From IMG/VR virus record IMGVR_UViG_3300010233_000076, positions 1 to 33,956 of that record: DNA of 33,956 nt; one strand, given 5' to 3'. The translations under genes were made by a program, and so were the position numbers. This document shows, piece after piece, positions 7,685 through 28,539 of this stretch (its first letter is position 1; each line of letters starts with the position of its first letter). The DNA comes from a virus. Below the pieces are notes generated by a model. That model did no database searches. It was not told where the DNA came from and saw only the letters and a list, made by a program, of their open reading frames with translations.

Positions 7685-7900
7685 TTACATATAATTTGTT
7701 AAATAATTAGCCCATTCTCTCCAATTAGAGAAGTTTTCTGGAAGAGGAAATTGACCTAATTTGTTCTCTTCTATAACAAAGAGTGCCCATTGTTTCCATT
7801 CATCCTCATCATTAATCACAGGTATATCTAGATCTGGCAAATCAATTACCAAAGAGCTAGCCCAATCTACAAAATTAATTCCATTTGGATTGACTATCAT
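7685..7900 (-). CDS. Small conserved phage protein, 71 aa
   Basis: An acidic, tryptophan-rich protein with two similar W-W patterns: EDEWKQWALFVIEENKLG and ENFSNWREWANYLTNYM. The phrase 'P.P..F.NWREWA' is one I associate with small proteins next to gp10-like genes in short-tailed phages, without known function. Its ATG overlaps the TGA of the gp10-like gene (ATGA), which indicates coupled translation and suggests it is needed in the same assembly step. Confidence 0.65.
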   Translation of the reverse strand: MIVNPNGINFVDWASSLVIDLPDLDIPVINDEDEWKQWALFVIEENKLGQFPLPENFSNWREWANYLTNYM

Positions 7901-10248
7901 GGTCTGTAATCTCCTGGAGCGTAATTGAGAAGAACTTTTCCGCCTTGATAATATCCATCTGAAATATTGCTCTCAAATCTAAATGAAACCAATCTTCCCA
8001 TTTGGAATGTATCAACCTTGGCTAGTTCAACAATCGTTTGACCTGGTTGAAATGTATAGGTAGGCGATGAGGTAATTATGCTTTGAGCAAATGATCTATA
8101 ATTTATCGTCAATGTCATTTGTTGTTGTTGGATAAAGTCAGGTTCTATTCTGCGAGCGCGAAGATTCATATCTCCTTGAGGACTTCTCTCAAACATCGTT
8201 TTAATGGGAGTTTCATAAAAAGATTGGATAGCTAATGATTGACCATAAAGAACCATATCGGTTCCCTTTTCATGTTGCCAGACACCGTAACAAAGATTAG
8301 GTATATTATAGGTAAAAGTTACAGCATTACCACCTGCCGCACCTGCTCCAACTCCTGCATTAGCCCCGGCAATATAAGTAAAATGAGTTGCGTCCGTTAC
8401 AATAATTGGTCCGGTCACATTCATTTGTGCAGCTGTAAGACCTCCAGAATCAACAGCGCCAGCTATGGTAACAATAGTTCCATTGAACAATCCTGCCGTG
8501 GAGACCGTTGTGACTATGACAACATTTGATCCATTGACTGTAAAGAGAGGATTGTTTGCTAATGGAACTGTAACAGGAACGGTTGGTAAAAATTGATTCA
8601 ATATGGGATTAGAATCAGCCAACATAGGCTTAGGAAAGAAACTTGGAGCAAATGCAGCAGATCTTCCTAAAACTGAATCATACCAAGCATTATCTTTATA
8701 GTTAAAGATGAGTACATCCGTACATTCTGTGGCGTTACCTTTCGGCCAGTGCCACCAGATTTCGTTAAATCTCTCATTAACCCACCCAAAGACCTTATTA
8801 CGTTGGTCCATGTTAATATTATCGAAAAAGTAATCTCTTGATTGGTCATTGTCTAAAGGTCTGACAACACCGTTGTAGATGTAAAACTGATCAACACCGA
8901 TCCAGTAATATATATTGAAAATGCTAACAACACAATTTTGACCCATGATGGATATACCATCTTGTATAGTATCAAAGGAAAAAGGAGTGATACCACCCTG
9001 GAATGTACCTCTAACCAAAGAATCCATAGCCCAGAACAAGACGGCGGGTGTATTCGATCCACCTCTCGTTCGTAAACCAAGAATTATCTTTGTTCCTGCT
9101 ATTGGTACATTGAGTGCTGTTGCCCAATTATTAGGAGTTAGCGTAATACTTACGACTCCATCATTTCCATACATCATGAGATATGGACCAACAACAACAA
9201 TACCACCAGATGTCCTTGGAAGATAAACTGGATCAAGTAGGGTTAATGCTCCATTGCTATTAATATCCCCAGCATAAATGTTTGTTTGAACTTCGTTGTT
9301 GATATCATCTGCATTTGGAGCAGCATTGGCTAATAAATAAGTTATAGTTGCTGCATAGGATAGGATAGCTGCGTTTCCACCTCCATTAGCCCCAACCAAT
9401 CCAGCAGTTCCAGCAACAAATGATATATGTGTAGGATCTACGATCGTAATAGGAGAAACAACATTTAGCGTTGCTGCTGTTATAGTATCTGTTGTGGTTG
9501 CACCAGCCAAACCAACAAGTTGACCATTTTGAAAAATAGATGAATCAGGAACAGTTATTGTCACTACCCTTGATGCGGCCATAGTTGTTAATGGATTTAC
9601 TGCTAAAGCAACAGTTGTTAAATAACTTAATGTTACCTCATTTCCTCCACCTACTGCTGTTGAAGTTGCCGTAGCAGGAGCCACAAAGGAATAATGAGTT
9701 CCATCAACAATTGTAATAGGAGCTTGAATGTTAATTTGAGGAGCCGTTAATCCCCCTGTAGCAGCAGCTCCACTTAATGTGAGAATCTGACCGGCTCTAA
9801 ATATGGAAGAATCAGGAACGGTAACCTGAACCACATTTGTGTTAATCGTTGTTGATATAGGATTATTACCCAATAATATAATCGTAGAAACAGCTGGATT
9901 CGTATATTGATCAAAAGTCCAAGTGTTGTTTGGATCTGCTATAAATCCGACTGGCGTTCGAGAAGTTTCTGCATTTGTAATGCCTTGTAGAGTAGAATTA
10001 AAGAACTCTAAAGATGCTGGTCTTCCTAAATATACATCAACAGAATTCTGTTTATTAATAACATACATGTTTCTGATTATCTCTGATGAACCTGGATCTA
10101 TAAGATCATAACCACCTATTTTCTTTGGCTCACCTAAATAAAAACGACACCATTGACCATCTATATATCTTCGAGAGTGAAATGGGGTTCCATCCCGCTG
10201 TATGCCAGGTAAAAATTGTAATGGTTCAATGAGGTGATCTATTGCCAA
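7897..10248 (-). CDS. gp10-like packaged-DNA stabilisation / tail accessory protein with inserted beta modules
   Basis: A 783-residue protein. The N-terminus (LQFLPGIQRDGTPFHSRRYI, then DGQWCRFYLGEPKKIGGY) matches the pattern of the P22 gp10-like family, which closes the portal after DNA packaging. The middle contains FGWVNERFNEIWWHWPKGN and the end LNYAPGDYRP. Three copies of a roughly 80-residue beta module are inserted: two near residues 120-300 (each with VTVPDSSIF) and one near 570-650. The module also occurs in other proteins here. P22 gp10 is about 470 residues, so the insertions explain the size. The start is TTG at 10248, six bases after GGGGG; no in-frame ATG lies nearby. Confidence 0.7.
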   Translation of the reverse strand: MAIDHLIEPLQFLPGIQRDGTPFHSRRYIDGQWCRFYLGEPKKIGGYDLIDPGSSEIIRNMYVINKQNSVDVYLGRPASLEFFNSTLQGITNAETSRTPVGFIADPNNTWTFDQYTNPAVSTIILLGNNPISTTINTNVVQVTVPDSSIFRAGQILTLSGAAATGGLTAPQINIQAPITIVDGTHYSFVAPATATSTAVGGGNEVTLSYLTTVALAVNPLTTMAASRVVTITVPDSSIFQNGQLVGLAGATTTDTITAATLNVVSPITIVDPTHISFVAGTAGLVGANGGGNAAILSYAATITYLLANAAPNADDINNEVQTNIYAGDINSNGALTLLDPVYLPRTSGGIVVVGPYLMMYGNDGVVSITLTPNNWATALNVPIAGTKIILGLRTRGGSNTPAVLFWAMDSLVRGTFQGGITPFSFDTIQDGISIMGQNCVVSIFNIYYWIGVDQFYIYNGVVRPLDNDQSRDYFFDNINMDQRNKVFGWVNERFNEIWWHWPKGNATECTDVLIFNYKDNAWYDSVLGRSAAFAPSFFPKPMLADSNPILNQFLPTVPVTVPLANNPLFTVNGSNVVIVTTVSTAGLFNGTIVTIAGAVDSGGLTAAQMNVTGPIIVTDATHFTYIAGANAGVGAGAAGGNAVTFTYNIPNLCYGVWQHEKGTDMVLYGQSLAIQSFYETPIKTMFERSPQGDMNLRARRIEPDFIQQQQMTLTINYRSFAQSIITSSPTYTFQPGQTIVELAKVDTFQMGRLVSFRFESNISDGYYQGGKVLLNYAPGDYRP

Positions 10249-10249
10249 T

Positions 10250-12595
10250 TTATACCCCCATTACACTTAGGAAAAGAGCACCAGCTGGATCAATACCCGC
10301 AGCTAAATTAGTAACAAAAATTCGACATGAATTTGAACTAGAAGCAAATAGAGAAGTAGTCATAGGTACATTCAGTCCAAATGCATTTGTCATTACTACA
10401 GGAAAATTGGTGACAAATGCATTTGTATAGGTAATGGTATAATCACCAGCAGCATTTCTAACAATTGTATTAACTCCCACATTATAACTAATGGTTGGAT
10501 TTGGATTTGCCATGTTTGTAAACGTAGCTACCACTTTTGGAATATTTGTAACAAAAGGAACGGCAGGGTAAGGAATAGCTTGATACGTAGGCAGTGCAGC
10601 TGCGCCATTAGAAGTTAATACTTGCGTAGCAGCGCCTGGAGCAACTGTTTGCACTGGGTTTGTTGCGGTGGTACCAGCACAAAGCGTTCCATAAGCCGTT
10701 GTGAGGGTAGCAACTCCCGTGCCCCCAAATTGGACTGTAACCGGCGTTCCATTCCATACACCAGTCGTAATTGTTCCAACAGATACAATGTTTAACTGTG
10801 TGGCTTGAGGAATCGTTGAACTGATAGAAGGAATTCCACCTGCGCTTGTTACCAAAACACCATTGTTGGCTGTCGCTAATCCTGTAACCGTATTTGCAGC
10901 ACTAGAATATAATATCTGGTTGATTGTACTAGCATTCGGGTATGAAGCAGCTGTATAAGAAAGTTGTCCTGCCGCATTTGAAACCAGAACTTGATTAGCA
11001 ACTGTTGCATCTGCTAATGGAAGTGTCCAATTAACATTAGCTCCCAAAGCTCCGGCACTTAAAGTCGCATAATTTCCTAAATTTGTACCAGTTAGCCGTA
11101 CAACATTCCCAGCAGCTACTGATATACCTGTTTGCCCATTTGTCAGGGTTCCTAGATTTGCAGCTAAGTTTCCACCTGCTGAAAACCCAAAGTTACCCCC
11201 TGCAAAACTGTAAAATCCTGTATTATTTGAATTTGTAAAAACGATAGTAGGATTTGCGACACTACCAGGACCAAAGTTTGCTGTCACCGCGACTGTAGGT
11301 GTTTGATACAAATTTGCACCGTCTGAATATAAAATTACTTTTTCTCCTTGAGGAACTATAATTGGTGCGCCAATGCCAAATAGTTGAAATCCTAATGTAT
11401 TTAAACCAGCGGTATGATTGTATATATACCATTGACCAGCTGCCACAGGAAAAGTAACGGTGGTATTTGCAATCATATTGCCTGTGAATGTCTGTACCAA
11501 TCTTGAAGCTTGCTGTGATGTCTCATTAAATTGACCTCCTGCTGTCACATCCAGGGCTAATGTATTTACTTGAAATGTAGTTGATTGACCGAATCCAAGT
11601 GAATTCCAATTTGGTGAATTAAATACAAATTCAGAAGAACCACCAGGATTTATGGAAAAGGTTGCCAAACTATCAATTGTTGATCCATCTGTCGTTGTAA
11701 CATTAACAACACCAGTTCCATTGTTATTAACAGCTAAATAATATCCTGAAGGAGTAGGTATGGCAGAAGAAGGAAGATTTATCGTTCCTGCACCTCCAGT
11801 CCAAACCAATAAGGATGCTCTATCTGCTAAAACTGCTGTATAATTACCCGCAACTATTTTAGAAGGAAATGATGAATTCAAAGTTCCGCCAATGGTTGTA
11901 AGTCCCAATCCTTGTATTGCCTGAGCATTAGCCGTTGAAGTTGTGGCACCTCGAAGAGAAGTAAGCCATGTTCCACCAATAGTTGTGTTGTCGGTTAATA
12001 TAAAATCATAGGTTTGAGAAATTCTTAATGAGAGGAGAAAATTGCCGGCGAAATCATAAATATAAAATGGGTTTAAACCATTATTTACAAAGGTTAATGG
12101 TTGTCCTACAGAAACTTGAGTAGCATTTGGGAGAGTTATAGATTGATATTGATTATAGGTCGCTGTGACAGCTGCGCCGCCACCTGATCCATTAGCATTA
12201 GCATTTCCTGCAGTTGGATATTGAAAACTATTTGCCCCAACTCCTTGTGCAATGGAATTAATATTAATTTGAACAGCTGTTATGGCATTTACATCAGCAG
12301 AACCAGCTATTGTAATAGGTGTCTGGGATAAAATTTGAGAATTAAAAGGACCATTGATCTGTATTATATTAGATCCGTTAAATGTTTGAACCGGATTTAA
12401 AGGTAGATTAATAGTAACAGGTGCACCAGCATTAGCTTGAACCGTCATAACAGAAGCTGCAACATTATTAGCAGCATCATCCAAATAGGTTGTTGGCCAT
12501 GTTAATTGAATAGGGGCATTGAGTACTATATTTCGAAAAGAAATGGTCGAAGGTTGAACAAAATTACCATTAAAAACATTATTATAGGTAGTCAT
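10250..12595 (-). CDS. Tail fibre / receptor-binding protein
   Basis: A 781-residue protein. The N-terminus (VFNGNFVQPSTISFRNIVLN, then PIQLTWPT) resembles the attachment domain of many phage tail fibres. It carries one copy of the beta module seen in the gp10-like protein (residues about 65-145), then DRASLLVWTGGAGTINLP-type beta sheet, then stalk repeats shared with the other fibres (LYSSAANTVTGLATANNGVL and GGTG...CAGTTATNP). The C-terminal head (GDYTITYTNAFVTNFPVVMT) differs from the other fibres here. It is the last fibre gene of the array and precedes the gp10-like gene by one base. Confidence 0.75.
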   Translation of the reverse strand: MTTYNNVFNGNFVQPSTISFRNIVLNAPIQLTWPTTYLDDAANNVAASVMTVQANAGAPVTINLPLNPVQTFNGSNIIQINGPFNSQILSQTPITIAGSADVNAITAVQININSIAQGVGANSFQYPTAGNANANGSGGGAAVTATYNQYQSITLPNATQVSVGQPLTFVNNGLNPFYIYDFAGNFLLSLRISQTYDFILTDNTTIGGTWLTSLRGATTSTANAQAIQGLGLTTIGGTLNSSFPSKIVAGNYTAVLADRASLLVWTGGAGTINLPSSAIPTPSGYYLAVNNNGTGVVNVTTTDGSTIDSLATFSINPGGSSEFVFNSPNWNSLGFGQSTTFQVNTLALDVTAGGQFNETSQQASRLVQTFTGNMIANTTVTFPVAAGQWYIYNHTAGLNTLGFQLFGIGAPIIVPQGEKVILYSDGANLYQTPTVAVTANFGPGSVANPTIVFTNSNNTGFYSFAGGNFGFSAGGNLAANLGTLTNGQTGISVAAGNVVRLTGTNLGNYATLSAGALGANVNWTLPLADATVANQVLVSNAAGQLSYTAASYPNASTINQILYSSAANTVTGLATANNGVLVTSAGGIPSISSTIPQATQLNIVSVGTITTGVWNGTPVTVQFGGTGVATLTTAYGTLCAGTTATNPVQTVAPGAATQVLTSNGAAALPTYQAIPYPAVPFVTNIPKVVATFTNMANPNPTISYNVGVNTIVRNAAGDYTITYTNAFVTNFPVVMTNAFGLNVPMTTSLFASSSNSCRIFVTNLAAGIDPAGALFLSVMGV

Positions 12596-12597
12596 AT

Positions 12598-13236
12598 TTA
12601 GTCAGCCTTTCTGGTTGTATATCTATCAGTCTTGCGCAGCGTATCCTTATTATTCCAAGAAGCAATCAGCTTTGCATAAGAATCTTCAATTAATGCTGCT
12701 CTCTCATCATTCTTCATGGTAAGCATCGCTTCTAACAAAACAGCTCTTATTAGAATCTCAGGCATAAATTGGGTAAGATAATTGGTTTGAAAGTTGATAT
12801 CTATAACTTGTGGAGTCTCAAGATATATAAGCTCATAAGGATAAGCCTGATCTGGTGTTGGAGAGATATAAAAGTTTTGATATGTATAATCGGCATAGAA
12901 ATAAGGAGTAGCAACTTGTGTTGCATCAGGCCAATAATCCCTGCAAAACTCATATGTTCTTTGTAGAAGGTTGTTAGATGTATTAAATCCAACTCCAGTT
13001 CCATAATTGAAAGAAACCGTATTTTGCCATCTATTTGGTTTTTGCAAAACAAATTGATTGGGTACAAAATTAGAATTCAATACCACTTCAAACAATAGTG
13101 TATCAGAATCTCTTGCAATTCTCTCATGTGCAAACTTTATCCAGCTGTCCATATTGTCTGTCACAGAAGAATCATCTCGTTCAAGATCAGAAATAACACG
13201 AGCAACTAATGTATTATAGGTGAGAACAAAAGACAT
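12598..13236 (-). CDS. Head-tail adaptor-like protein
   Basis: A 212-residue protein beginning MSFVLTYNTLVARVISDLER, with WIKFAHERIARDS near residue 35 and a C-terminal helical part (FMPEILIRAVLLEAMLTMKN, then YAKLIASWNNKDTLRKTDR). This pattern, an N-terminal helical bundle and 'F..LAEERI.RD', is that of small phage adaptor proteins that join the portal to the tail in short-tailed phages (SU10/T7 gp11-like). Its start overlaps the previous stop as TAATG. Finding an adaptor inside the fibre array is unusual but the family match is reasonable. Confidence 0.65.
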   Translation of the reverse strand: MSFVLTYNTLVARVISDLERDDSSVTDNMDSWIKFAHERIARDSDTLLFEVVLNSNFVPNQFVLQKPNRWQNTVSFNYGTGVGFNTSNNLLQRTYEFCRDYWPDATQVATPYFYADYTYQNFYISPTPDQAYPYELIYLETPQVIDINFQTNYLTQFMPEILIRAVLLEAMLTMKNDERAALIEDSYAKLIASWNNKDTLRKTDRYTTRKAD

Positions 13237-13565
13237 TATTTGCCCTCACTTTTTGGAAATTTGTCTTTTACATTTTTGATATGATCGAAGAATTCCTTTG
13301 ATTTTGGAATCTCGCCAGCATCCATTGAATGCCAAAGCATATCTATATAATCTTCAGGCTTTTTATAGAGTGGTTTTCTATCTAATTGATATTTGGTAGC
13401 TTCATATTCCGCTTGCAGTTCCAAATCAGCCTTTTCTAATTCATCAATAGTTGGCAAATCGAGACCATCTAAAGAAACGAGACCGCTATATTCCTCGCCA
13501 CTCATTGACCAAATTCTGCCTTTAAATTTATGTGTCAAAATCCATGGTATATTATATTTCATCAT
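13236..13565 (-). CDS. Small tail-fibre accessory protein
   Basis: A 109-residue protein. The N-terminus is MMKYNIPWILTHKFKGRIWS; the C-terminal half carries YIDMLWHSMDAGEIP and FFDHIKNVKDKFPK, a signature I associate with small phage proteins encoded beside fibre genes (often named tail assembly or DUF4376-like). The frame is open to 13592, but the ATG at 13565 has GGAG five bases upstream and forms an ATGA overlap with the previous stop, so I chose it. A role in fibre assembly or attachment is inferred from position. Confidence 0.65.
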   Translation of the reverse strand: MMKYNIPWILTHKFKGRIWSMSGEEYSGLVSLDGLDLPTIDELEKADLELQAEYEATKYQLDRKPLYKKPEDYIDMLWHSMDAGEIPKSKEFFDHIKNVKDKFPKSEGK

Positions 13566-14224
13566 GCTAACTCCATTGCAAAGATTGTACATATTCCTCT
13601 AAAACCAGAACTACTATTAGGATCATTTACAGTATAATTTATTTGTCCTGATTCCCCTTGAACTGCCATTTGAATACTATATGTTATTGATGATGTCGTA
13701 GCAGGGCTATCCACCCAAGCAAATCTAACGGTGTCATTATCATATCCAAAATCATTCGATCCATTACCAGTCGTACAGGCTACCCTTGACCCAGGGCTTG
13801 AACCTATTCCTATACCAGTAGTTCCATTATATATTTGAAAGGCAGTTCCTGAAGCTTGACCAATGCCAGTGATAGATCCAAAAACAAGAACATTACTTGT
13901 GGAATATGTTGGCGTAATTGAAACAGACAATCCCGTTAATGCAGTATATGTTGCACTAGAAGTTATAAATGTAGTGTTTAGAACTGTAGTTACACATTGA
14001 GTAACAACACCTCCCATTTGAAATGAAGGAAGAGCAGAAGCTCCATTGGAGATCAGGTATTGTGAAGAATTTCCGACATTAGCAACATGTTGAAGTGCAC
14101 CTGTAGAAGTTGTCCCTCCACACAATATTGTATAAGCAGTAAAACTTGTATCTCCTGTGCCTCCGTTTGTAACGGTTATTGGCGTTGGAGTATTAATACT
14201 ATTAATATTATTATTTTTAGTCAT
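13562..14224 (-). CDS. Short receptor-binding protein, paralogue 3
   Basis: A 220-residue protein with two parts. Residues 1-65 form one stalk unit (VTNGGTGDTSFTAYTILCGG). The rest is a beta head with YTALTGLSVSITPTYSTSN, WVDSPATTSSITYSIQM and a terminal FAMELA. The head belongs to a group of phage tail C-terminal domains marked by 'DSPATTSATTY'. It is the most diverged of three adjacent paralogues (with 14237-14899 and 14899-15552): it has CTTGNGSNDFGYDNDT where the others have a serine-rich stretch. Likely a small fibre tip or adhesin. Confidence 0.75.
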   Translation of the reverse strand: MTKNNNINSINTPTPITVTNGGTGDTSFTAYTILCGGTTSTGALQHVANVGNSSQYLISNGASALPSFQMGGVVTQCVTTVLNTTFITSSATYTALTGLSVSITPTYSTSNVLVFGSITGIGQASGTAFQIYNGTTGIGIGSSPGSRVACTTGNGSNDFGYDNDTVRFAWVDSPATTSSITYSIQMAVQGESGQINYTVNDPNSSSGFRGICTIFAMELA

Positions 14225-14236
14225 TATTAATCCCCC

Positions 14237-14899
14237 TCATGATGTTTCCATTGCCGTTATAGTGCTGACACATCTTTTATAGGTAGCTGAATTCGTATCG
14301 GTAATTGAATAATTTATATAAGCTGTCCCTGAAGGAATAATCACTTGAACTTGATAAGTTGTAGCGGAAGTCGTTGCTGGAGAATCTAGATAAGTAAAAC
14401 TTTCTGTTGTCGTATCCGACCCTGTATAAGCAATCGCCATAGATGATGTACATGATGATCTTGATCCAGCAGTTGCACCAACTCCAATAGGTGTTGCTCC
14501 TCTTAATAACCTAAAACAAATAGGAACACCACCAAGTGGACCGGCTGACCCACTAATTGATCCAAAGAGTATAATTTTATTGCTGGAAGATGCTGGAGTA
14601 ATTGTGAGTGATAATCCAGTTATATTTGTAAAAGTGGTGCTTGAGCTTGAAAATGTTGTAGTTAAAGTTGTAGATACTATCTGTTGAATACTACCTGAAT
14701 TAGATATCCATTGTGGAATAGAAGTCCCATTAGATGCCAAAACTTGACCTGAAGTTCCAACTCCGGAAACATTTTGTAATGCACCTGTAGTTGTTGTTCC
14801 AGCACAGATTACAGAATATGCAGTGAAGGTTGTATTGGCTGTTCCACCCTCAGCAATTGTAAATGGTAATTGAAAGTTAACGGAATTGTTTTTAGCCAT
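14237..14899 (-). CDS. Short receptor-binding protein, paralogue 2
   Basis: A 220-residue paralogue of its neighbours. The N-terminal stalk unit is FTIAEGGTANTTFTAYSVIC; the head includes FTNITGLSLTITPASSSNKI, LLRGATPIGVGATAGSRSSC, FTYLDSPATTSATTYQVQV and ends TAMETS. Its ATG shares one base with the upstream stop (TAATG), so the pair is probably translated together. Conserved framework with variable loops between the SRSSC and DSPATTS elements suggests these genes diverge at the tip that contacts the host. Confidence 0.75.
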   Translation of the reverse strand: MAKNNSVNFQLPFTIAEGGTANTTFTAYSVICAGTTTTGALQNVSGVGTSGQVLASNGTSIPQWISNSGSIQQIVSTTLTTTFSSSSTTFTNITGLSLTITPASSSNKIILFGSISGSAGPLGGVPICFRLLRGATPIGVGATAGSRSSCTSSMAIAYTGSDTTTESFTYLDSPATTSATTYQVQVIIPSGTAYINYSITDTNSATYKRCVSTITAMETS

Positions 14900-15552
14900 T
14901 ATGTAATCTCCATAACAACTATTGTACTAATTGATCTTTTAAAAGTTGATGAATTCGTATCAGCAGAAGTAAAATTCACATATCCTGTTCCTGAAGGAAC
15001 AAGTACTTGCAATTTATAAGTCGTAGCAGAAGTAGTTGCCGGAGAATCTAGAAAATCGAACGGAGCACAAAACATTTGTGTATTGGCAGCTTGACTAGTA
15101 ATAGATGATGTAGCGGCTGTTCTAGAACCAACAGATGTACCTATACCAATAGCTGTACTACCTCTTAGTAGTCGAAGTGCCATTCCAGCTGTAGAAGTTC
15201 CACATACATAACCCCATACATATATTACATTGCTCGAAGATATTGGAGTAATCGTTACTGATAAACCTGTAAGATCGGTATAAGATGTGCTGCTTGTTGA
15301 AAAAGTAGTTGTAAGGGAAGTAGATTGAGTTTGAAACATTGAGCCGCCGAGAGCTTGCCAAGTAGGCAATGCACTTGAGCCATTAGAAGTTAATGCTTGT
15401 CCGGCTGTTCCCACACCCGAAACATTTTGAAAAACGCCTGTAGCAGTGGTTCCAGCACATAAAACAGAGTATGCCGTAAATGATGCAGCTCCAGTTCCAC
15501 CATTTCCTACGACAAAAGGTTCTGGAGCATTAATTGCATTGTTTGTTGTCAT
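14899..15552 (-). CDS. Short receptor-binding protein, paralogue 1
   Basis: A 217-residue protein: stalk unit VVGNGGTGAASFTAYSVLCA in the first 65 residues, then the 'DSPATTS' type beta head (LLRGSTAIGIGTSVGSRTAA, FDFLDSPATTSATTYKLQV, ending STIVVMEIT). First of three tandem paralogues, nine bases after the 394-residue fibre gene. The N-terminal unit is also found inside the long fibres, so these may be short fibres attaching through the same kind of contact, or exchange cassettes for the long fibre tip. The second is speculation. Confidence 0.75.
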   Translation of the reverse strand: MTTNNAINAPEPFVVGNGGTGAASFTAYSVLCAGTTATGVFQNVSGVGTAGQALTSNGSSALPTWQALGGSMFQTQSTSLTTTFSTSSTSYTDLTGLSVTITPISSSNVIYVWGYVCGTSTAGMALRLLRGSTAIGIGTSVGSRTAATSSITSQAANTQMFCAPFDFLDSPATTSATTYKLQVLVPSGTGYVNFTSADTNSSTFKRSISTIVVMEIT

Positions 15553-15561
15553 TCATACCCC

Positions 15562-16746
15562 CTACACATATGTAATATTCCCGTATGAAGAATAAACAAC
15601 GAAGACAGTATTTGCCGTGACACAAACTAATTGCACGCAATCATATTGTAGAGAACTTGCGAGCGATCCCCCTGTACCAGAAGTAGTTACTTGGTTTCCT
15701 ATATTGATAGTTTGACTAGCTGCCTGACCAATTTTCCAACCACCTGCTCCTTTACCAACTACTTGAAATACACTTCCAAGCGCAGCTGTTGCAGGAAGAG
15801 TAAGCGTAACTAATCCGGAATTATCTGCTACATATGCTGTATTAACAGCCATAGTCACAGATGTTGAAGTTTGATCTACCCAAGGGATTATTGCTGAGGC
15901 TTGCCACGTAGGAAGGGCTGATGCCCCATTTGATGTTAGAACTTGGCCCGAACTACCAACCCCTGAAACATTCTGGAATGCTCCCGTCGCAGTTGTGCCA
16001 GCACAGATAACAGAATAAGCGGTAAAGGTTGTGTTTCCTGTTCCCCCCACTGCAACAGTTGCTGTCCCTATAGAAGGAACTCCAGAACCGCTCGTTAAGA
16101 GCACACCATTATTAGCCGTTGATAATCCAGAAATGGTATTTGCCGCAGAGGAATAGAGTAGTTGATTAATGGTAGTCGTTGCAGGATAGGTAGCTGTACT
16201 CCAAGCCGGTGTTGTGGATGCTCCTGATAATAAAACTTGATTAGCTGTAGCCGTACCACTTAGAATTGCACCCGCTGAAGCAGTAGAATAGAATATACCA
16301 CCGTTCGAGGCTGTCAAGTTTGCGTTTGTGCCTCCATAAGCCAATGGAATCAATGAGCCATTCCATACGCCAGTTGTGATCGTGCCTAATGTTGTAAGAG
16401 AAGTTTGACCAACGTAGGCAGAAGAGATATCAATTACAGGTCCGTGTGAAACAGTACTAACTGTAATACGGTTTGATATTCCACCAACCGCTATGTCTTT
16501 CCATGTAGGCCAAGCCGCTACATCATTTGATGTTAATACTTGACCTAGAACTCCAAGTCCAGAAACATTTGTCATTGCTGATGTAGAAGTTGTTCCTTGA
16601 AGGATTACAGAGTATGCGGTAAAAGATGTATTCCCTGTACCACCATTTGGAACGGTAACGGCTGTTCCATTCCAAACTCCTGTGGTAATCGTACCTAAAG
16701 TCGTAATAGTTGTTGAACCAATATCTATTGCTGTATTTGTCGTCAT
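15562..16746 (-). CDS. Tail fibre protein, shorter relative of the 1632-aa fibre
   Basis: A 394-residue protein built from two short stalk units (GGTGNTSFTAYSVILQGTTS near the start, GGTGNTTFTAYSVICAGTTA near residue 230) around one long unit (YGGTNANLTASNGGIFYSTA). The C-terminal head of about 100 residues (LVTLTLPATAALGSVFQVVG, GAGGWKIGQAASQTINI, NTVFVVYSSYGNITYV) is the same type as in the 1632-residue fibre, so it looks like a shortened copy of that gene. The two genes are separated by one base. Confidence 0.75.
   Translation of the reverse strand: MTTNTAIDIGSTTITTLGTITTGVWNGTAVTVPNGGTGNTSFTAYSVILQGTTSTSAMTNVSGLGVLGQVLTSNDVAAWPTWKDIAVGGISNRITVSTVSHGPVIDISSAYVGQTSLTTLGTITTGVWNGSLIPLAYGGTNANLTASNGGIFYSTASAGAILSGTATANQVLLSGASTTPAWSTATYPATTTINQLLYSSAANTISGLSTANNGVLLTSGSGVPSIGTATVAVGGTGNTTFTAYSVICAGTTATGAFQNVSGVGSSGQVLTSNGASALPTWQASAIIPWVDQTSTSVTMAVNTAYVADNSGLVTLTLPATAALGSVFQVVGKGAGGWKIGQAASQTINIGNQVTTSGTGGSLASSLQYDCVQLVCVTANTVFVVYSSYGNITYV
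16358..16386 (-). repeat. 29-base copy of the fibre repeat in the 394-aa fibre gene
   Basis: This stretch matches exactly part of the 62-base repeat found twice in the neighbouring 1632-residue gene (17562-17623 and 20019-20080). It encodes the start of a TTGVWNG-type junction between stalk units. Exact DNA identity between two genes indicates recent exchange. Confidence 0.7.
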
Positions 16747-16747
16747 T

Positions 16748-19700
16748 TTACACCACCGTTATTACGCCAGAGGAGCTAAATACAACAAATGTCGTATTAG
16801 CGGTTATACATTTAACTGTTAAAGTATTATATTGATTCGTAGATGCTAGACTTCCACCTGTTCCAGTTGTAGTAGATGTCGAGTTGAAATTGGTTGTTTG
16901 GCTTGCTGCTTGAGCCATTTTCCACCCACCACTGGATCCTCCAACAATCGTAAATGTGTCCCCTTGAGCAGCTGTTCCAGGAAGTGTAAGAGTTACAAGA
17001 GAGGCACCATTATTTATAAAATACTGTGACCCAGCTACCATAGTTACTGAGCTTGAATTTTGATTTACAATGACAACTCCACCAGATGCAGCTTGCCAGG
17101 TAGGAAGAGCCGAAGCACCATTAGAGGTGAGAACCTGACCCGATGATCCAACACCTGAAACATTTTGGAATACTCCGGTAGAAGTCGTTCCAGCACAAAT
17201 AAGGGAATAAGCGGTAAACGTAGTGTTACCCGTTCCGCCATTGGCAACGGTAATCGCAGTTCCATTCCATACACCTGTAGTAACGGTACCTAATGTCGTG
17301 ATTGAGGATTGGCCAACATATGAAGCAGATATATCAATTGCCGGCGTTGTTCCTCCAGAAGAAGTAATCCTATTAGTGGTTCCAGTAACAGATGTTACGC
17401 CACCAGTAGCAGCTTGCCATGTTGGTAATGCACTCGCGCCATTTGATGTTAGAACCTGTCCTGATGTTCCAACCCCTGAAACATTCTGAAATGTTCCCGT
17501 CGCAGTTGTACCCGCACAAATAACAGAATATGCCGTGAATGTTGTATTGCCTGTTCCACCATTAGCAACGGTAATAGCTGTACCATTCCATACGCCAGTT
17601 GTGATCGTGCCAAGAGAAGTTATATTAAGTTGAGTAGTATTAGGAATTGTTGTGCTTATTGAAGGAACTCCACCAGCGCTCGTTATAAGAACACCACTAT
17701 TTGCGGTTGCCAAATCAACTATTGTGTTGGCAGCTGATGAATAGAGAAGACGGTTAATTGTAGTTGTTGCAGGATACGTAGCCGTACTCCAAGCCGGTGT
17801 AGTAGAAGAACCAGACATTAAAATCTGATTAGCTGTTGCTGTACCAGCAAGAATTGCACCCGCAGATGCTGTTGAATAGAAGATTCCACCGTTGGAAGCG
17901 GTTAGGTTTGCATTTGTTCCGCCATAAGCTAAAGCAACAACTGTTCCATTCCAAACGCCCGTTGTGATAGTGCCAAGAGTTGTAATAGATGATTGTCCAA
18001 CGTAGGAAGCTGATATATCAATAACTGGTGTTGTTCCACCCGTAGAAGTGATTCTGTTTGTTGTTCCAGAAACGGAAACTACATTAGAAGATCCAAATTG
18101 GCTAAAGGATATAGAATCCGTACCAATTGTAGTTACTGTAGCAGTTTCAACCCAAGCAGTTGCCGCATTTACAGTTCCGTTATCAATAAGGACAAAATCT
18201 CCAGGTTGAATCTGGGCTATTGTATTGTAATCGGTAGATCTGGTAAGTACCCAATTGGTTGAACCTGATCCCACAGTCGTAAGATTATATATACCGTTTT
18301 GGGCTGCTGTAGATTGATTTTTAACTAATATTCTAGAAGTAGATGCTGGAGATACACCATCTACTGAAAATGCAACTTGAGTACTATTGTTTGTTAATGT
18401 GGCACCAACACCAGCCGCTCCATTAGAATAAGTGGCGGATAGATTCGCAGTTGTTCCAGCATAACAAGCATTTTTAAAGGTTAGCCCCTGACTTATAGCA
18501 TCGGCATATTCTTTTGTTACAGCACCAAGATTCGTTACAGGATCTCCACTTAAAATAAGAAGACCCGTCATTGTTCCGCCAGCTAAAGGAACAGCACCAA
18601 GATTAGATAAAGCTGTGGGTGCTGTAGTGGCTCCTGTCCCGCCATTGGCAATAGCTATAGTTGTTCCAGTCCAGGTTCCGGATGTGATAGTACCAACTGT
18701 CGTAATATTACCTTGAGTAGCTGTTGGAAGTGTTGATGATATAGAGGGAACACCTCCGGCACTGGTTATCAATACTCCGTTGTTTCCAGTTGCAAGACCA
18801 ACAATCGTATTCGCAGCTGACGAATAGAGTAGTTGATTAATTGTCGTTGTTGCTGGATAAGTTGCGGTTGACCAAATTGGAGCAGTAGATGAGCCAGATA
18901 ATAAAACTTGATTAGCTGTAGCAGTCCCTGACAAAATAGCTCCGGCAGAAGCTGTTGAGTAAAAGATACCACCATTAGATGCCGTTAGATTTGCATTCGT
19001 TCCACCATATGCCAGAGGAATTAAAGAGGCATTCCATGTTCCTGTAGTGATCGTTCCCAAAGTAGTGATAGATGTTTGCCCAACATAAGCGGCAGAAATA
19101 TCAATAACGGGATTAGTTCCGCCAGTTGATGTAATCCTATTTGTTGTACCAGATACAGAGATAACTACTCCTGTACCCGCTGCTTGCCATGTAGGGAGGT
19201 TACCAGCACCATTTGATGTTAGAACATATCCGGAAGTACCTACCCCTGACACATTCTGAAATGGGTTTGTCGCACTTGTTCCAGCGCAGATGACAGAGTA
19301 AGCAGTGAAAGTAGTATTTCCGGTACCCCCATTTGGAACGGTTATCGCTGTACCTTGCCATGTACCTGATGTGATAGTTCCAACAGCAGTAATATTGCCT
19401 TGTGTTGCGGCAGGAATCGTTGTGCTTATTGATGGAATCCCAGAACCATTTGTTACCAAAACACCATTGTTAGCAGTTGATAACCCAGAAACTGTATTCG
19501 ATGCTGATGAATATAATAACTCATTAGCAGTTACTGTTGCGGGATATGTAGCAGTCGACCAAGCAGGTGTCGTTGCAGATCCTGATAGAAGAACTTGGTT
19601 TGCTGTTGCAGTTCCAGCAAGGATAGCTCCGGCAGATGCTGTTGAATAGAATATACCACCATCAGAAGCCGTTAAATTGGCGTTAGTTCCACCATAAGCA

Positions 19701-21646
19701 AGAGCTATAACATTACCATCCCATGTACCAGTAGTTATAGTACCTAAAGTTGTTATTGATGTTTGTCCAACATATGTGGCAGCAATATCAATAACAGGTG
19801 TTGTTCCGCCAGAAGATGTTATACGGTTTGTGGTTCCTGTCACTGATGTTACAGCACCGGATATACCTGTTTGCCAAGTAGGTAATGTACCTGCTCCATT
19901 GGAAGTCAGAACTTGTCCGGATGTTCCTATGCCAGAAACATTTTGAAATGCACCTGTAGCAGTAGTTCCAGCACAGATAACGGAATAAGCAGTAAATGTA
20001 GTATTTCCGGTTCCACCGTTAGCAACGGTAATAGCTGTACCATTCCATACGCCAGTTGTGATCGTGCCAAGAGAAGTTATGTTAAGCTGCGTAGCATTTG
20101 GAATGGTAGTACTTATAGATGGGATTCCACCCGCACTTGTTATCAAAACTCCATTGTTTGCTGTAGAAATACCTGTAATTGTGTTCGTTGCAGACGAATA
20201 AAGAATCTGATTCACAGTAGTGGTTGCGGGGTAAGTAGCCGTTGACCATGCTGGAGTTGTTGACGATCCAGAAAGCAAAACTTGGTTCGCTGTTGCTGTA
20301 TCACCTAATATAGCTAGTGCGGAAGCCGTAGAATAAACAATGCCACCGTTACTTGGCGTCAAATTAGCATTTGTGCCTCCGTATGCTAACCCTACTATTC
20401 CTGCTTGCCATGTTCCAGTGGTGATTGTACCAAGAGTCGAAAGAGAAGTTTGTCCTACGTATGATGCTGAAATATCAATCTGAGGATTTGTTCCGCCTGT
20501 TGATGTGATACGATTTGATGTGCCAGTAACAGATGTTACGTTTGTGGCGCCAAATTGATTAAAATCTATGGGGTCTGTACCAACTGTAGTGATGGTATTA
20601 ATCTCAACCCACAATGTATTTGCGTAAAGAGTACCGTTTGTTACAAATGTTGCTGATCCAGGTACAATCTGGGAATTTGTATCATAATCCGTTGTTCTAG
20701 TTAAAACCCATGCGGCTGCACCACTACCAACAGTAGTTAAAGAGTAAATTCCATTTTGAAAATCTGAAGTCTGATTTTTAACAAGAATACGAGCATTTAT
20801 AGAAGGACTTGTTCCATCTGTTGAAAATGCTGCTAAAGCACCATTATTAGTTAAAGTAGCTCCAACACCAGCAGATCCATTAGCATAGGTAGCATTTAAA
20901 TTTGCTGTAGAACCTGCGTAACAAGCGGATTTAAAACTTATTCCAGAACTAATAGCATCTACATATTGTTTTGTTGCAGCTCCTAAAGAGTTAACCGGAT
21001 TGGCATTAAGGATAAGATATCCTGTCATTGTTCCACCAGCTAAAGGAACAGCACCTAAATTTGCCAAAGCGTTAACAGCTGTAGTAGCACCAGTTCCACC
21101 ATAAGCAATAGCAACGGCTGTTCCTTGCCAAACACCAGTACCTATAGTTCCAACAGTTGTAATATTGCTTTGAGTTGCTGTTGGCAGCGTGGAAGAAATA
21201 GAAGGCACCCCCCCAGAACTTGTAACAAGGACACCATTATTTGCGGTAGTAAGTCCCGCAATTGTGTTTGCGGCAGAGGAATATAGTAATTGATTAGCCG
21301 ATGTTGTAGCGGGATAAACAGCTGTACTCCAAGAAGGTGCTACATTTGATCCAGCTAACAAAACTTGGTTAGCAGTTGCGGTAGGCGTTAATATATCTAT
21401 CTTTGTGGCATCTGAATAAAGAATACCGCCATTTGCTGCGGATAATGTATTATTTGTTCCACCCCATTGCAATGCCACAGGAGTAGCTTCCCATTGACCA
21501 GTTACAATGGTACCAAGTTCTGTAAAAGAAGTTTGACCAGGATAAGCCGGATCAATAGAAATAATAGGCGTAGTGCCTCCAGAAGAATCTATTTCTAGAG
21601 CCGAACCTGTTACTGTTCTTACAGCTACAAATGTTCCAAATGCCAT
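16748..21646 (-). CDS. Giant repetitive tail fibre protein, 1632 aa
   Basis: The longest gene in the window. The chain alternates five long stalk units (YGGTNANLTASNGGIFYSTA through SAGGVPSIST), four short units (GGTGNTTFTAYSVICAGTTA through LTSNGASALPTWQ) and two copies of a larger domain (PLAGGTMTG, then GVGATLTNN, then ILVKNQ and NGIYSLTTVGSG) near residues 200-370 and 990-1160. It ends in a 100-residue beta head with SGGWKMAQAASQTTNF. It is serine/threonine/glycine-rich with no membrane segment, as expected for a trimeric fibre stalk. A GGGAGA Shine-Dalgarno precedes the ATG. Probably the main long fibre that contacts the host. Confidence 0.85.
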   Translation of the reverse strand: MAFGTFVAVRTVTGSALEIDSSGGTTPIISIDPAYPGQTSFTELGTIVTGQWEATPVALQWGGTNNTLSAANGGILYSDATKIDILTPTATANQVLLAGSNVAPSWSTAVYPATTSANQLLYSSAANTIAGLTTANNGVLVTSSGGVPSISSTLPTATQSNITTVGTIGTGVWQGTAVAIAYGGTGATTAVNALANLGAVPLAGGTMTGYLILNANPVNSLGAATKQYVDAISSGISFKSACYAGSTANLNATYANGSAGVGATLTNNGALAAFSTDGTSPSINARILVKNQTSDFQNGIYSLTTVGSGAAAWVLTRTTDYDTNSQIVPGSATFVTNGTLYANTLWVEINTITTVGTDPIDFNQFGATNVTSVTGTSNRITSTGGTNPQIDISASYVGQTSLSTLGTITTGTWQAGIVGLAYGGTNANLTPSNGGIVYSTASALAILGDTATANQVLLSGSSTTPAWSTATYPATTTVNQILYSSATNTITGISTANNGVLITSAGGIPSISTTIPNATQLNITSLGTITTGVWNGTAITVANGGTGNTTFTAYSVICAGTTATGAFQNVSGIGTSGQVLTSNGAGTLPTWQTGISGAVTSVTGTTNRITSSGGTTPVIDIAATYVGQTSITTLGTITTGTWDGNVIALAYGGTNANLTASDGGIFYSTASAGAILAGTATANQVLLSGSATTPAWSTATYPATVTANELLYSSASNTVSGLSTANNGVLVTNGSGIPSISTTIPAATQGNITAVGTITSGTWQGTAITVPNGGTGNTTFTAYSVICAGTSATNPFQNVSGVGTSGYVLTSNGAGNLPTWQAAGTGVVISVSGTTNRITSTGGTNPVIDISAAYVGQTSITTLGTITTGTWNASLIPLAYGGTNANLTASNGGIFYSTASAGAILSGTATANQVLLSGSSTAPIWSTATYPATTTINQLLYSSAANTIVGLATGNNGVLITSAGGVPSISSTLPTATQGNITTVGTITSGTWTGTTIAIANGGTGATTAPTALSNLGAVPLAGGTMTGLLILSGDPVTNLGAVTKEYADAISQGLTFKNACYAGTTANLSATYSNGAAGVGATLTNNSTQVAFSVDGVSPASTSRILVKNQSTAAQNGIYNLTTVGSGSTNWVLTRSTDYNTIAQIQPGDFVLIDNGTVNAATAWVETATVTTIGTDSISFSQFGSSNVVSVSGTTNRITSTGGTTPVIDISASYVGQSSITTLGTITTGVWNGTVVALAYGGTNANLTASNGGIFYSTASAGAILAGTATANQILMSGSSTTPAWSTATYPATTTINRLLYSSAANTIVDLATANSGVLITSAGGVPSISTTIPNTTQLNITSLGTITTGVWNGTAITVANGGTGNTTFTAYSVICAGTTATGTFQNVSGVGTSGQVLTSNGASALPTWQAATGGVTSVTGTTNRITSSGGTTPAIDISASYVGQSSITTLGTVTTGVWNGTAITVANGGTGNTTFTAYSLICAGTTSTGVFQNVSGVGSSGQVLTSNGASALPTWQAASGGVVIVNQNSSSVTMVAGSQYFINNGASLVTLTLPGTAAQGDTFTIVGGSSGGWKMAQAASQTTNFNSTSTTTGTGGSLASTNQYNTLTVKCITANTTFVVFSSSGVITVV
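17562..17623 (-). repeat. 62-base exact direct repeat, copy 1
   Basis: Identical over all 62 bases to 20019-20080 in the same gene. It spans the junction between a long and a short stalk unit. The two copies are 2457 bases apart, exactly 819 codons, so recombination between them would remove half of the fibre without breaking the frame. Confidence 0.85.
20019..20080 (-). repeat. 62-base exact direct repeat, copy 2
   Basis: Second copy of the repeat at 17562-17623. Flanking units are similar in protein but differ at many third codon positions, so the perfect match stands out and suggests recent duplication or gene conversion. Confidence 0.85.
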
Positions 21647-21658
21647 TAGTTATTCTCC

Positions 21659-23710
21659 CTACAACTGTTGACCAGCATAATTAAGCCAAACAGCTGTCGT
21701 TGATGATGTAGCAATAAATAAAGATTTTTTTATTTGTCCCACTGTATTAGGTTCAACAGACGTATAAACTCCAGCAACAGTAGGAGATAAAAAATATCCA
21801 GTAGCTGGGCTTAAACCACCTAAAACAGTAATTAATCCTCCAAATTGATAAGTAAAATTGTCTGCATCAATAACAGCCGTGACGATCCCTATAACTTGTG
21901 AATCAGCGGCATTATCGGCCATGGCATAATTATATGTATTTGATCCAATACAATTGATGATATCTCCGACAATAAATGCATGAGCAACTTGATGAACATT
22001 TACGGAAAATTCTGCTGCAGAAGTGTTTTGCCAAGTTGGAAGAGCTGCGGCCCCATTGGAAGTTAAAATTTGCCCTGCGACACCAGTTCCAGCGTTTTGA
22101 AGAGGATTTGTTGCCGTAGTTCCTGAACATATAACTCCATATCCTGAACCAAAAGTTTGAACACCAGTTCCACCAACAACTACAGTTGCGGTTCCGATAG
22201 AAGGAGTTCCTGCAAAGTTTGTTAGAAGAACACCGTTGTTAGCGGTCGCCAGACCTATAACAGTATCATTGGCTATCGCATATAATATTGAATTGCTATT
22301 AACCACAGATGGATAAGTTGTGAGGGACCAAGCAGGAGCTGCGTTTGAACCAGATAACAAAACTCTACTAGCTGTTCCCGTTCCAGCTAATATTGCGCCT
22401 GCGGCAGCTGTTGAATAAAAAATACCACCATTAGAGGCAACTAAGTTTGCATTCGTTCCACCATATGCAAGTGAAACTGGAGTTCCATGCCACACACCTG
22501 TTGTTATCGTTCCCAAGGTTGTTATGGATGCTTGACCAAGGTATGCCGGATCAATGGATATAATTGGGGTCGTGCTATTATTAACAACATCGATTTCACC
22601 AACTGTGCCTGTAACGGTAGTTACCGTACCAATAAATCCAAACTGTGACCAGGTGATAGGATCAACACCAACATTGTTTACAGTGTTGTTTTCGATCCAA
22701 GAAGTATCAGCATTAACGGCACCATTTTGAATAATAGTATAATCACCGGCTTGTATATTTGTTGGTGAATTAAAATCACTGGCTCTCGTTAGCACCCAAT
22801 TAGTCGCAATGGAACCAATATTGGTAACAACATAGATTCCATTTTGGAATGTTGTGCCTTGATCTTTGATAAGAACTCTAGAATTAAGAGGAGGATTCAC
22901 AGTATCTAAGGCAAATTGTGCTTGAACACCATTGTTAGTTAAGGTAGCACCAACTCCAGCAGCCCCATTATTATAAAGAATATTAAGATTTGCTGTTGTG
23001 CCAGCATAACAAGAAGCTTTAAAAGGAAAAGCAAATTGTTGGGCTGTTAATGTAATGTCAGTTCTATTTAACCCAGCATTATCAATAATATTGATACCCA
23101 TATTCAGGCCAGGTATAAGATTGATACTTGGCCTTGTGCTTGTCTGCACTCCATTATTCAAGACATTTATCTTTTGCACTGATGTGTTTGGATTGACCAC
23201 GATAGAAGGATTGCCAGCTATACCATCACCATTAGTAATAGTTGTCGTAGCATCCCCATTGGTTAAAGCAACAGTGGCAAACGTATTTACACCGTTACGA
23301 ACAACAAGACCTGTCGTGTTTAAAGCATTAATACCAGCTGAGTTACCCGTGACAGCAATGGTTTGATTTCCACCACCAGCTATAATAGAAATTCCCGCAC
23401 CAGCAGTTAGAACACTAGAGTTTGGTAAGTTAATGTTGGGAGCAGAAAGGATATAACCGGCATCTGTTACAAGTGTAATATTATTAAGAGAAGCGGCGGT
23501 AGCCGTTAAGGCTACACCATCCAATTGAATTTGACCAAATACTCTATCAAAATTGACAGCTAAATTGCTCATGGTCATCATAGAACGATTACCATAACCA
23601 TCACACACAGGAGCGGCTAAATTCGTAAAACCTGTTCCACCAGAATTAAGATTTAAAATATCTGGATATGTACCGGCAGGTGCTAGAGGACCCCAATTAA
23701 TAGCTGTCAT
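21659..23710 (-). CDS. Tail fibre / receptor-binding protein with distinct N-terminal domain
   Basis: A 683-residue protein. The unique N-terminus (MTAINWGPLAPAGTYPDILN) may dock to the tail. It is followed by beta-rich repeats, one copy of the larger fibre domain (GVGATLTNN, VLIKDQGTTFQNGIYVVTN), one long and one short stalk unit, and a third type of C-terminal head (VAHAFIVGDIINCIG, LSPATGYFLSPTVAGVYTS). The frame stays open to 23734, but the ATG at 23710 overlaps the preceding stop as ATGA and has GGGAGA upstream, so I chose it. First fibre of the array. Confidence 0.8.
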   Translation of the reverse strand: MTAINWGPLAPAGTYPDILNLNSGGTGFTNLAAPVCDGYGNRSMMTMSNLAVNFDRVFGQIQLDGVALTATAASLNNITLVTDAGYILSAPNINLPNSSVLTAGAGISIIAGGGNQTIAVTGNSAGINALNTTGLVVRNGVNTFATVALTNGDATTTITNGDGIAGNPSIVVNPNTSVQKINVLNNGVQTSTRPSINLIPGLNMGINIIDNAGLNRTDITLTAQQFAFPFKASCYAGTTANLNILYNNGAAGVGATLTNNGVQAQFALDTVNPPLNSRVLIKDQGTTFQNGIYVVTNIGSIATNWVLTRASDFNSPTNIQAGDYTIIQNGAVNADTSWIENNTVNNVGVDPITWSQFGFIGTVTTVTGTVGEIDVVNNSTTPIISIDPAYLGQASITTLGTITTGVWHGTPVSLAYGGTNANLVASNGGIFYSTAAAGAILAGTGTASRVLLSGSNAAPAWSLTTYPSVVNSNSILYAIANDTVIGLATANNGVLLTNFAGTPSIGTATVVVGGTGVQTFGSGYGVICSGTTATNPLQNAGTGVAGQILTSNGAAALPTWQNTSAAEFSVNVHQVAHAFIVGDIINCIGSNTYNYAMADNAADSQVIGIVTAVIDADNFTYQFGGLITVLGGLSPATGYFLSPTVAGVYTSVEPNTVGQIKKSLFIATSSTTAVWLNYAGQQL

Positions 23711-27399: not shown

Positions 27400-28539
27400 T
27401 TATGTAAATGCAACTACATATTGATTCACACCAAATCTTCCGAAAGTGGTCTGATACAAATTACCTTTACCAGGTGTCATTTGAATTGCAGCACCGCCAC
27501 CAGCTCCAGCACCGTTTGCAGCTGTCAAAGCATTATAAGAAAATGAATTGGCATTAATAACGGTAAGAGTTGCCGTAATGTTATAATTTGCAGGAGTAAT
27601 GTTATTGATATTTCCAGTACCGCCAGAAATTGTAACAGATTCACCAGTGGTAAATTGATGCCCTGGAGCTGTAACATTTATTTGAGTGCTAAGGTTGGCA
27701 GCTGTAGCTAAAGCATTATTTGCTAGATATACGGTACCATTATTAGAATTATAATAATTACGAGTGTCACCACTTGTACTATAAGCATTAATGGTCAGCC
27801 GCTTAACCGAATCCGCATTTGCCGCAGGTGTATAAGTACCCCTTACATCACCCGTTGTTCCTGTAGCTGGCAATGGATCACCAACCGTGATAGTTCCAGC
27901 ATCTAAAGCTCCGTTGAACTTTTGAGCGAAGATATCGTTTGCATTCTCAAGATAGTAGGGAAGTCCAAACTTATTTCCTACACCAATTGAAACGTTTGCT
28001 GTAGTTCCAGCATCTACATACATTGCTGAAATCCATTTAAAGGCTTTATTCAATGTCGTGGTATTTGCACCGGCAGTAGTAAGAACTGTTTCCACCATTG
28101 GTTGTTCATATTGATCCCATCCCCATACTGTGAAGTTAACAGCTGTAGAGTTAACGAGACCTGTATAAATAATATTACGAGGAACATCTAACATAATAGC
28201 ACCAGCATTTTGAGCGGGACCGCCTGCTGGAAAACTATTTGGAGAAAAGTTATTTACAAATGTCTGAAAGATAGAATTTGTCGTAATTAATGGTACATAT
28301 CCATTACCAGCTATAGTAGCTAATGCAAAAAGATTAGCGGTATTAACTGCCGCCGGAATAATATCCAACAATGCTGTAGGAGTTACATAAATTCCTGGTG
28401 AATGAGAATCAATAGGTGACGCAACTTGTGTAGAAGGTTGCAATACATTGGCTCCCGCTGCGAAGCGGGAACCTAGTATTGGTCCAACTCTAACACCATC
28501 AGAAAAGTGCGTACCCTTTGGAGGGAGAGTTATAGACAT
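27400..28539 (-). CDS. Head-associated structural protein
   Basis: A 379-residue protein immediately after the major capsid gene (three bases between). It has SRFAAGANVLQPSTQ near the start, one unit related to the tandem repeats of its downstream neighbour (FTVWGWDQYEQPMVETVLTT), and near residues 280-360 one copy of the shared beta module (TGESVTISGGTGNINNITPA, then VINANSFSYNAL). The end is GRFGVNQYVVAFT. An AGGAG Shine-Dalgarno lies eight bases before the ATG. Probably a capsid or neck accessory protein; I do not recognise a named family. Confidence 0.65.
   Translation of the reverse strand: MSITLPPKGTHFSDGVRVGPILGSRFAAGANVLQPSTQVASPIDSHSPGIYVTPTALLDIIPAAVNTANLFALATIAGNGYVPLITTNSIFQTFVNNFSPNSFPAGGPAQNAGAIMLDVPRNIIYTGLVNSTAVNFTVWGWDQYEQPMVETVLTTAGANTTTLNKAFKWISAMYVDAGTTANVSIGVGNKFGLPYYLENANDIFAQKFNGALDAGTITVGDPLPATGTTGDVRGTYTPAANADSVKRLTINAYSTSGDTRNYYNSNNGTVYLANNALATAANLSTQINVTAPGHQFTTGESVTISGGTGNINNITPANYNITATLTVINANSFSYNALTAANGAGAGGGAAIQMTPGKGNLYQTTFGRFGVNQYVVAFT

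What the first reader, a model, noticed from the sequence alone, without database searches (positions are those of the whole stretch)
10250..23710. Seven fibre-type proteins assembled from a common parts list
Seven proteins (683, 1632, 394, 217, 220, 220 and 781 residues) share a short stalk unit (GGTGNTTFTAYSVICAGTT-like, 11 copies by my count) and several share a long unit (YGGTNANL...ANNGVL, 7 copies). They end in four different head types: 'GYFLSPTVAG', 'GGWKIGQAASQ', 'DSPATTSATTY' and 'GDYTITYTNAF'. Fibres use about 40% of the window. A phage with several alternative or co-assembled heads on interchangeable stalks could have a broad or rapidly shifting host range.
Basis: partly seen in the sequence, partly recalled or inferred. 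Interest (0 to 1): 0.75.

Follow-up and report, generated by a model that had tools for sequence, protein, structure and literature searches.

The report
Snap-together phage tail fibre kit
This uncultured short-tailed phage has a row of fibre genes that look like a snap-together kit (a long fibre ending in a socket, a connector with plug and socket, and three short plug-bearing fibres with sugar-binding-type heads), and over a hundred other environmental phages follow the same plug-and-socket gene order.

Summary
In detail: seven intact co-directional fibre genes (37% of the window) share exactly 11 short stalk units and 7 long units and have four C-terminal types. The reading changes. F1 (N-terminal half) and F7 are mostly fixed-position orthologues in relatives; F2-F6 form a variable island. 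The 'GGWKIGQAASQ' end (F2, F3) is probably not a receptor head: its model (pLDDT about 97) matches the trimeric T4 gp9 / CBA120 TSP4 connector fold. The 'DSPATTSATTY' ends (F4-F6) model as TNF/C1q-like lectins. Genes just downstream of a connector end start with a short cap (MxxNNxIN); a second, unrelated C-terminal domain ('TYEVF') precedes a second cap (MxYKxxSP). In 144 fresh contigs chosen only by C-terminal domain, 135 typed followers match and 3 mismatch (p=5e-34); in 20 contigs with both systems it is 33 to 0. The same head families occur on both caps. Best explanation: a branched, serial plug-and-socket fibre, F2 to F3 to F4/F5/F6. Gene order, cap-socket matching and folds are shown; physical docking is inferred. 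It works like the CBA120, G7C and K1-5 branched receptor-binding systems, with a different socket and relay logic: a new variant of a known kind.

The parts
21659..23710 (-). F1, 683 aa: conserved N-terminal half (about residues 1-230), C domain, one long and one short unit, H1 end (about 571-683, bases 21662-22000)
   Evidence: Fixed position after g23707 in relatives; end varies
16748..21646 (-). F2, 1632 aa: long shaft, 4 short and 5 long units, two C domains, own N-terminal anchor type
   Evidence: N-terminus shared with L058
16751..17080 (-). F2 C-terminal H2 domain (probable socket, type N)
   Evidence: profile match
15562..16746 (-). F3, 394 aa: relay protein, N cap, 2 short and 1 long unit, H2 end
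16705..16746 (-). F3 N-terminal cap MTTNTAID (probable plug)
15565..15894 (-). F3 C-terminal H2 domain (probable socket), model pLDDT about 97
14899..15552 (-). F4, 217 aa: N cap MTTNNAIN, one stalk unit, H3 TNF/C1q-like head (bases 14902-15339)
14237..14899 (-). F5, 220 aa: N cap MAKNNSVN, one stalk unit, H3 head
   Evidence: 54% identical to F4
13562..14224 (-). F6, 220 aa: N cap MTKNNNINSIN, one stalk unit, H3 head
   Evidence: 49% identical to F4
12598..13236 (-). Adaptor (SU10_adaptor), right border of the variable island and likely attachment site
   Evidence: Pfam PF24175, E=2e-16
10250..12595 (-). F7, 781 aa: conserved fibre between adaptor and nozzle, one stalk unit, H4 end
   Evidence: orthologues in the same place
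7897..10248 (-). Nozzle protein, downstream neighbour of F7
   Evidence: matches solved nozzle chains

Best explanation
F2-F6 encode one branched, multi-tier tail fibre built by plug and socket. F2, a long trimeric shaft, attaches to the tail by its own N-terminus and ends in a trimeric connector domain (socket). F3 plugs into that socket by its short N-terminal cap and ends in a second socket. F4, F5 and F6 plug in by the same cap type and end in TNF/C1q-like heads that bind the host surface. Tandem duplication and exchange of cap-stalk-head genes changes which heads are mounted. Shown: gene order, module boundaries, fold of the socket and head models, cap-socket matching across phages. Inferred: that caps physically dock in sockets, that the fibres are homotrimers, the tier order, and receptor binding.
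For: The socket model resembles T4 gp9 and CBA120 TSP4 connector domains and lies within 12 residues of the C-terminus in 78 of 78 and 218 of 221 proteins. A rule set on training loci was tested on 144 fresh contigs chosen only by the C-terminal domain: Y cap after Y socket 50/66 and after N socket 1/122; N cap after N socket 85/122 and after Y socket 2/66; p=5e-34. It survives collapsing sockets at 75% and 60% identity (p=1e-25, 7e-4); in 20 contigs with both types 33 match and 0 mismatch. Second followers, not adjacent to the socket DNA, match 51 to 2. Relay proteins with both cap and socket are common, including 11 with a Y cap and an N socket. The same head families occur on both caps. F4-F6 heads resemble trimeric lectins.
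Against: No complex was predicted or seen; the structure tool folds one chain. Stalk and caps have low confidence in the monomer models. In CBA120 the matching domain is XD1, described as a probable spacer, while XD2/XD3 do the binding (PMC8825819). The two socket types are not detectably related by profile comparison (probability 8%), so the Y domain being a socket rests on gene order only. 36 of 122 N followers and 14 of 66 Y followers show neither cap, and the N-cap pattern is lenient: 136 of 667 other genes fit it.
Confidence: 0.68

Rival explanations
1. H2 is simply another receptor-binding end; the seven proteins are independent homotrimeric fibres each attached to the tail, and cap and upstream C-terminal domain travel together only because they are neighbours on the DNA.
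For: H2 is always C-terminal, as heads are; cap and socket DNA are adjacent, so block transfer would link them.
Against: Second followers, separated from the socket by a whole gene, still match 51 to 2; contigs with both types never mismatch; H2 models as a connector fold. Tandem duplication could explain part of the second-follower result.
Confidence: 0.17
2. F4, F5 and F6 co-assemble as one heterotrimer, like complement C1q, giving one composite head.
For: Three diverged tandem copies (44-54% identical) recur with different head families in L038, L051, L052, L058 and L093; the head fold is C1q-like.
Against: Arrays of two (L002, L060, L049) and of five (L059) also occur; copies mostly group within a phage rather than as A/B/C orthologues. 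P-SSP7 has four.
Confidence: 0.08
3. The array is a silent or switching reservoir: only one fibre is used at a time and the others supply sequence by recombination.
For: Shared units give repeats up to 62 identical bases.
Against: All genes intact, same strand, most with a start-proximal ribosome-binding-like stretch; only 10 exact repeats of 20 bases or more; no reverse transcriptase and no long inverted repeats; in relatives each copy is also intact.
Confidence: 0.05

Closest known systems
Branched tailspike complex of CBA120 (TSP1-4) and T4 gp9/gp10
   Same: Trimeric connector domains on one fibre mount other fibres (PMC8825819); the H2 model matches the TSP4 XD1 / gp9 fold.
   Different: There the connectors are N-terminal or mid-protein and XD2/XD3 do the binding. 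Here one XD1-like domain sits at the C-terminus and is reused in series.
Klebsiella phage anchor-branch systems and the K1-5/SP6 adapter (PMC6872550)
   Same: A second receptor protein docks by a short conserved N-terminal peptide; a headless adapter can carry two receptor proteins.
   Different: The peptides there differ per phage group. Here two peptide-domain pairs recur across many phages, co-occur in one genome without mixing, and form relay chains; the heads are TNF-like, not depolymerases.
Prochlorococcus phage P-SSP7 short fibres (PSSP7_037, 038, 039, 041)
   Same: Tandem short fibre genes with H3-type ends behind a long fibre.
   Different: No shared stalk unit, cap or H2 domain was seen.
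PDB 9efk orf22
   Same: One solved protein combines the C domain of F1/F2 and the H3 head of F4-F6.
   Different: One long protein, whereas the window splits these parts over several genes. Its phage could not be identified here.

Membership tests
Branched multi-RBP systems with peptide docking (CBA120, G7C, K1-5, KP32 type) | One fibre carries a trimeric connector domain of the T4 gp9/gp10 type | tested here: met
   H2 model Z 10-12.5 to T4 gp9, CBA120 TSP4 and KP1 Lilla1 chains; trimer itself not modelled
Branched multi-RBP systems with peptide docking (CBA120, G7C, K1-5, KP32 type) | Connector is gp10 domain 2/3 (XD2/XD3) | tested here: inconclusive
   The matched TSP4 residues 77-185 are XD1; XD2/XD3 neither listed nor excluded
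Branched multi-RBP systems with peptide docking (CBA120, G7C, K1-5, KP32 type) | Mounted fibres share a short conserved N-terminal peptide | tested here: met
   Caps MxxNNxIN and MxYKxxSP
Branched multi-RBP systems with peptide docking (CBA120, G7C, K1-5, KP32 type) | Physical binding of mounted fibre to connector | not testable with these tools
   No multimer modelling or binding assay
TNF/C1q-like lectin heads (PLTL, BC2L-C) | TNF-like jelly-roll fold over the whole domain | tested here: met
   Z 14-14.7 over 118 residues of the F4 head
TNF/C1q-like lectin heads (PLTL, BC2L-C) | Trimer with a sugar site | not testable with these tools
   Single-chain model only
Diversity-generating retroelement target | Reverse transcriptase nearby | tested here: not met
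   No PF00078 match in the 40587-base record; the record may be incomplete

The most novel reading that the evidence does not exclude
Many uncultured phages share at least two orthogonal plug-and-socket codes, each a roughly 15-residue N-terminal cap matched to a roughly 100-residue C-terminal domain. These let fibres be chained to several tiers and heads be traded between phages as ready-to-mount genes, so that fibre assembly order can be read from sequence alone.
Probability: 0.5. Interest if true: 0.75.

Novelty: new variant of a known kind. Interest (0 to 1): 0.6.

Why it matters
If caps dock in sockets as the statistics suggest, the assembly order of complex fibres in uncultured phages can be predicted from gene order, and receptor heads can be told apart from connectors. 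That would correct a natural misreading (including the one tested here) that every variable fibre end is a host-range determinant, and it would explain how phages can trade heads without breaking fibre assembly.

Tried and rejected
Heterotrimer idea for F4-F6: attractive because triplets recur, weakened by arrays of two and five and by within-phage grouping. DNA gene conversion: only 10 exact repeats of 20 bases or more, the longest (62) with both copies inside F2. Switching devices: none found. F7 against solved structures by sequence and by profile: nothing. Socket N against cultured phages: one record, where the genes downstream run the other way; socket Y none; long unit none. A scan of bacterial and archaeal genomes gave six bins, with too few clean followers for a test. 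Pfam gave nothing above its cut-offs for the seven fibres. Papers naming 9efk: none held. One tree of 'cluster 1' heads drew in stalk-only matches and was used only for its short-fibre clades.

Full report
Setting. The window is bases 1-33956 of a 40587-base virus record. It holds the late genes of a short-tailed phage, nearly all on the minus strand: portal and a GroES-like gene in the remaining part, then GroEL, major capsid protein, adaptor and nozzle in the window. Cultured relatives of the capsid protein reach only about 42% identity (Pelagibacter phage HTVC027P), but IMG/VR holds contigs with 76-92% identical capsid proteins.

Observation. The seven ORFs, the 11 short units, the 7 long units and the four C-terminal types are all there. 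Shuffled proteins give no short units.

What is fixed and what varies. In relatives the order is capsid genes, g24060, g23707, F1, a variable island, adaptor, F7, nozzle. F7 stays in place in every relative examined that reaches the adaptor. F1 keeps its N-terminal half but changes its end: H1 in the window and five relatives, an H2-type end in L078 and L036. In L037 F1 is replaced entirely. The island differs in each relative: two H3 fibres in L033, three fibres of another head family in L038 and L058, a repeat spike of another kind in L034 and L040.

Heads. The F4 model places residues 70-217 in a TNF/C1q-like jelly roll (pLDDT mostly above 90 there), closest to the lectins PLTL and BC2L-C and to chlamydial Pgp3. 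By sequence it matches the C-terminus of PDB 9efk orf22, present as 18 chains, which would fit six homotrimers. Prochlorococcus phage P-SSP7 carries tandem short fibres with the same kind of end. So F4-F6 most likely carry receptor-binding, perhaps sugar-binding, trimeric heads; this is inference from fold.

The H2 end is different. Residues 285-394 of F3 fold with pLDDT about 97 and match connector domains: T4 gp9, CBA120 TSP4 residues 77-185, and baseplate chains of KP1 Lilla1. It also matches C-terminal parts of a capsid spike and a tailspike, so the fold alone does not prove a connector role. In CBA120 such domains belong to the part that assembles four tailspikes into one branched complex; the specific match is XD1, whose role is described as not fully understood (PMC8825819). 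A second C-terminal domain ('TYEVF', type Y), not detectably related in sequence, was found in other phages.

Grammar. Listing genes in order showed that genes after a type N end start with a cap like MATNNAIN, and genes after a type Y end start like MAYKRISP. In L049 the chain reads: Y end, then Y cap with N end, then two N caps with heads. L055 has both systems side by side, each consistent.

Test. The patterns were set on the first loci. New loci were then fetched using only the C-terminal domains as queries and contigs already seen were removed, leaving 144. Among immediate followers, 50/66 after a Y end had a Y cap against 1/122 after an N end; 85/122 after an N end had an N cap against 2/66 after a Y end (p=5e-34). 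Collapsing ends at 75% identity leaves 99 matches and 2 mismatches; at 60%, 21 and 0. In 20 contigs with both types the count is 33 to 0. To separate function from simple linkage of neighbouring DNA, second followers were counted: 51 match, 2 do not. Tandem duplication may account for part of this. Head families occur on both caps, for instance 32 N and 13 Y in one cluster and 5 and 5 in another, so cap type is not a by-product of head family. Proteins that carry a Y cap and an N end occur (11), so cap and end of one protein are separable.

Model for the window. F2 (socket) to F3 (cap and socket) to F4, F5, F6 (cap and head). Which of F2 or F3 holds which heads, and whether one virion carries all three, is not known. 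F2 presumably attaches at the adaptor, by analogy with SU10, where long fibres attach to the adaptor and short ones to the nozzle (PMC9509320).

Relation to known systems. Docking of a second receptor protein by a short N-terminal peptide, and headless adapter proteins, are known from K1-5, SP6 and Klebsiella phages (PMC6872550); layered branching was proposed for phage phiKp24 (PMC9700779). This case works like them. It differs in the C-terminal gp9-type socket, in relay proteins, and in two cap-socket pairs that keep apart inside one genome. I found no description of these pairs in the papers searched, which is not proof of absence.

Limits. All phages in the test are metagenome-derived contigs. 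Start codons were chosen by rule. The N-cap pattern is permissive (136 of 667 other genes fit). No complex was modelled, no expression data exist, and the host is unknown.

Noticed in passing
nozzle 7897-10248 (9616-9891, 9349-9618, 8302-8580), F7 (12146-12424), g25312 (25312-27387), g27400 (27400-28539): An about 90-residue module is inserted in four different structural proteins (three copies in the nozzle). In relatives L003, L034, L037 and L038 it is also inserted in the adaptor, which lacks it here; the F7 copy is present in L058 and L078 but absent from other relatives. It looks like a mobile surface domain.
   Followed up: partly
30874-32538: Phage-encoded GroEL (PHROG 5725, E=4e-152), with a GroES-like gene just outside the window (L032:435-863).
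   Followed up: no
30306-30909 (+): Two small plus-strand genes resembling a RelE/HigB-type toxin and HigA-type antitoxin pair, between capsid genes and groEL; judged by eye only.
   Followed up: no
F1 and F2, C domain (for example F2 residues 215-375 and 1050-1185): The C domain is found in tail fibres, in PDB 9efk orf22 and weakly in a solved capsid decoration protein, 9nx3, so it may be shared between head and tail appendages.
   Followed up: partly
L034:4958-8722, L040:7463-10624: In two relatives the F2 position holds long repeat spikes (SIFGYQSL...NCAFG repeats); L040's still ends in the H2 domain, so shafts of unrelated kinds carry the same end.
   Followed up: partly
collections: The short stalk unit and both socket domains are frequent in IMG/VR (145-289 confirmed stretches per scan), whereas both sockets and the long unit are nearly absent from 50,697 cultured phage records, so these phages seem poorly represented in culture.
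   Followed up: no
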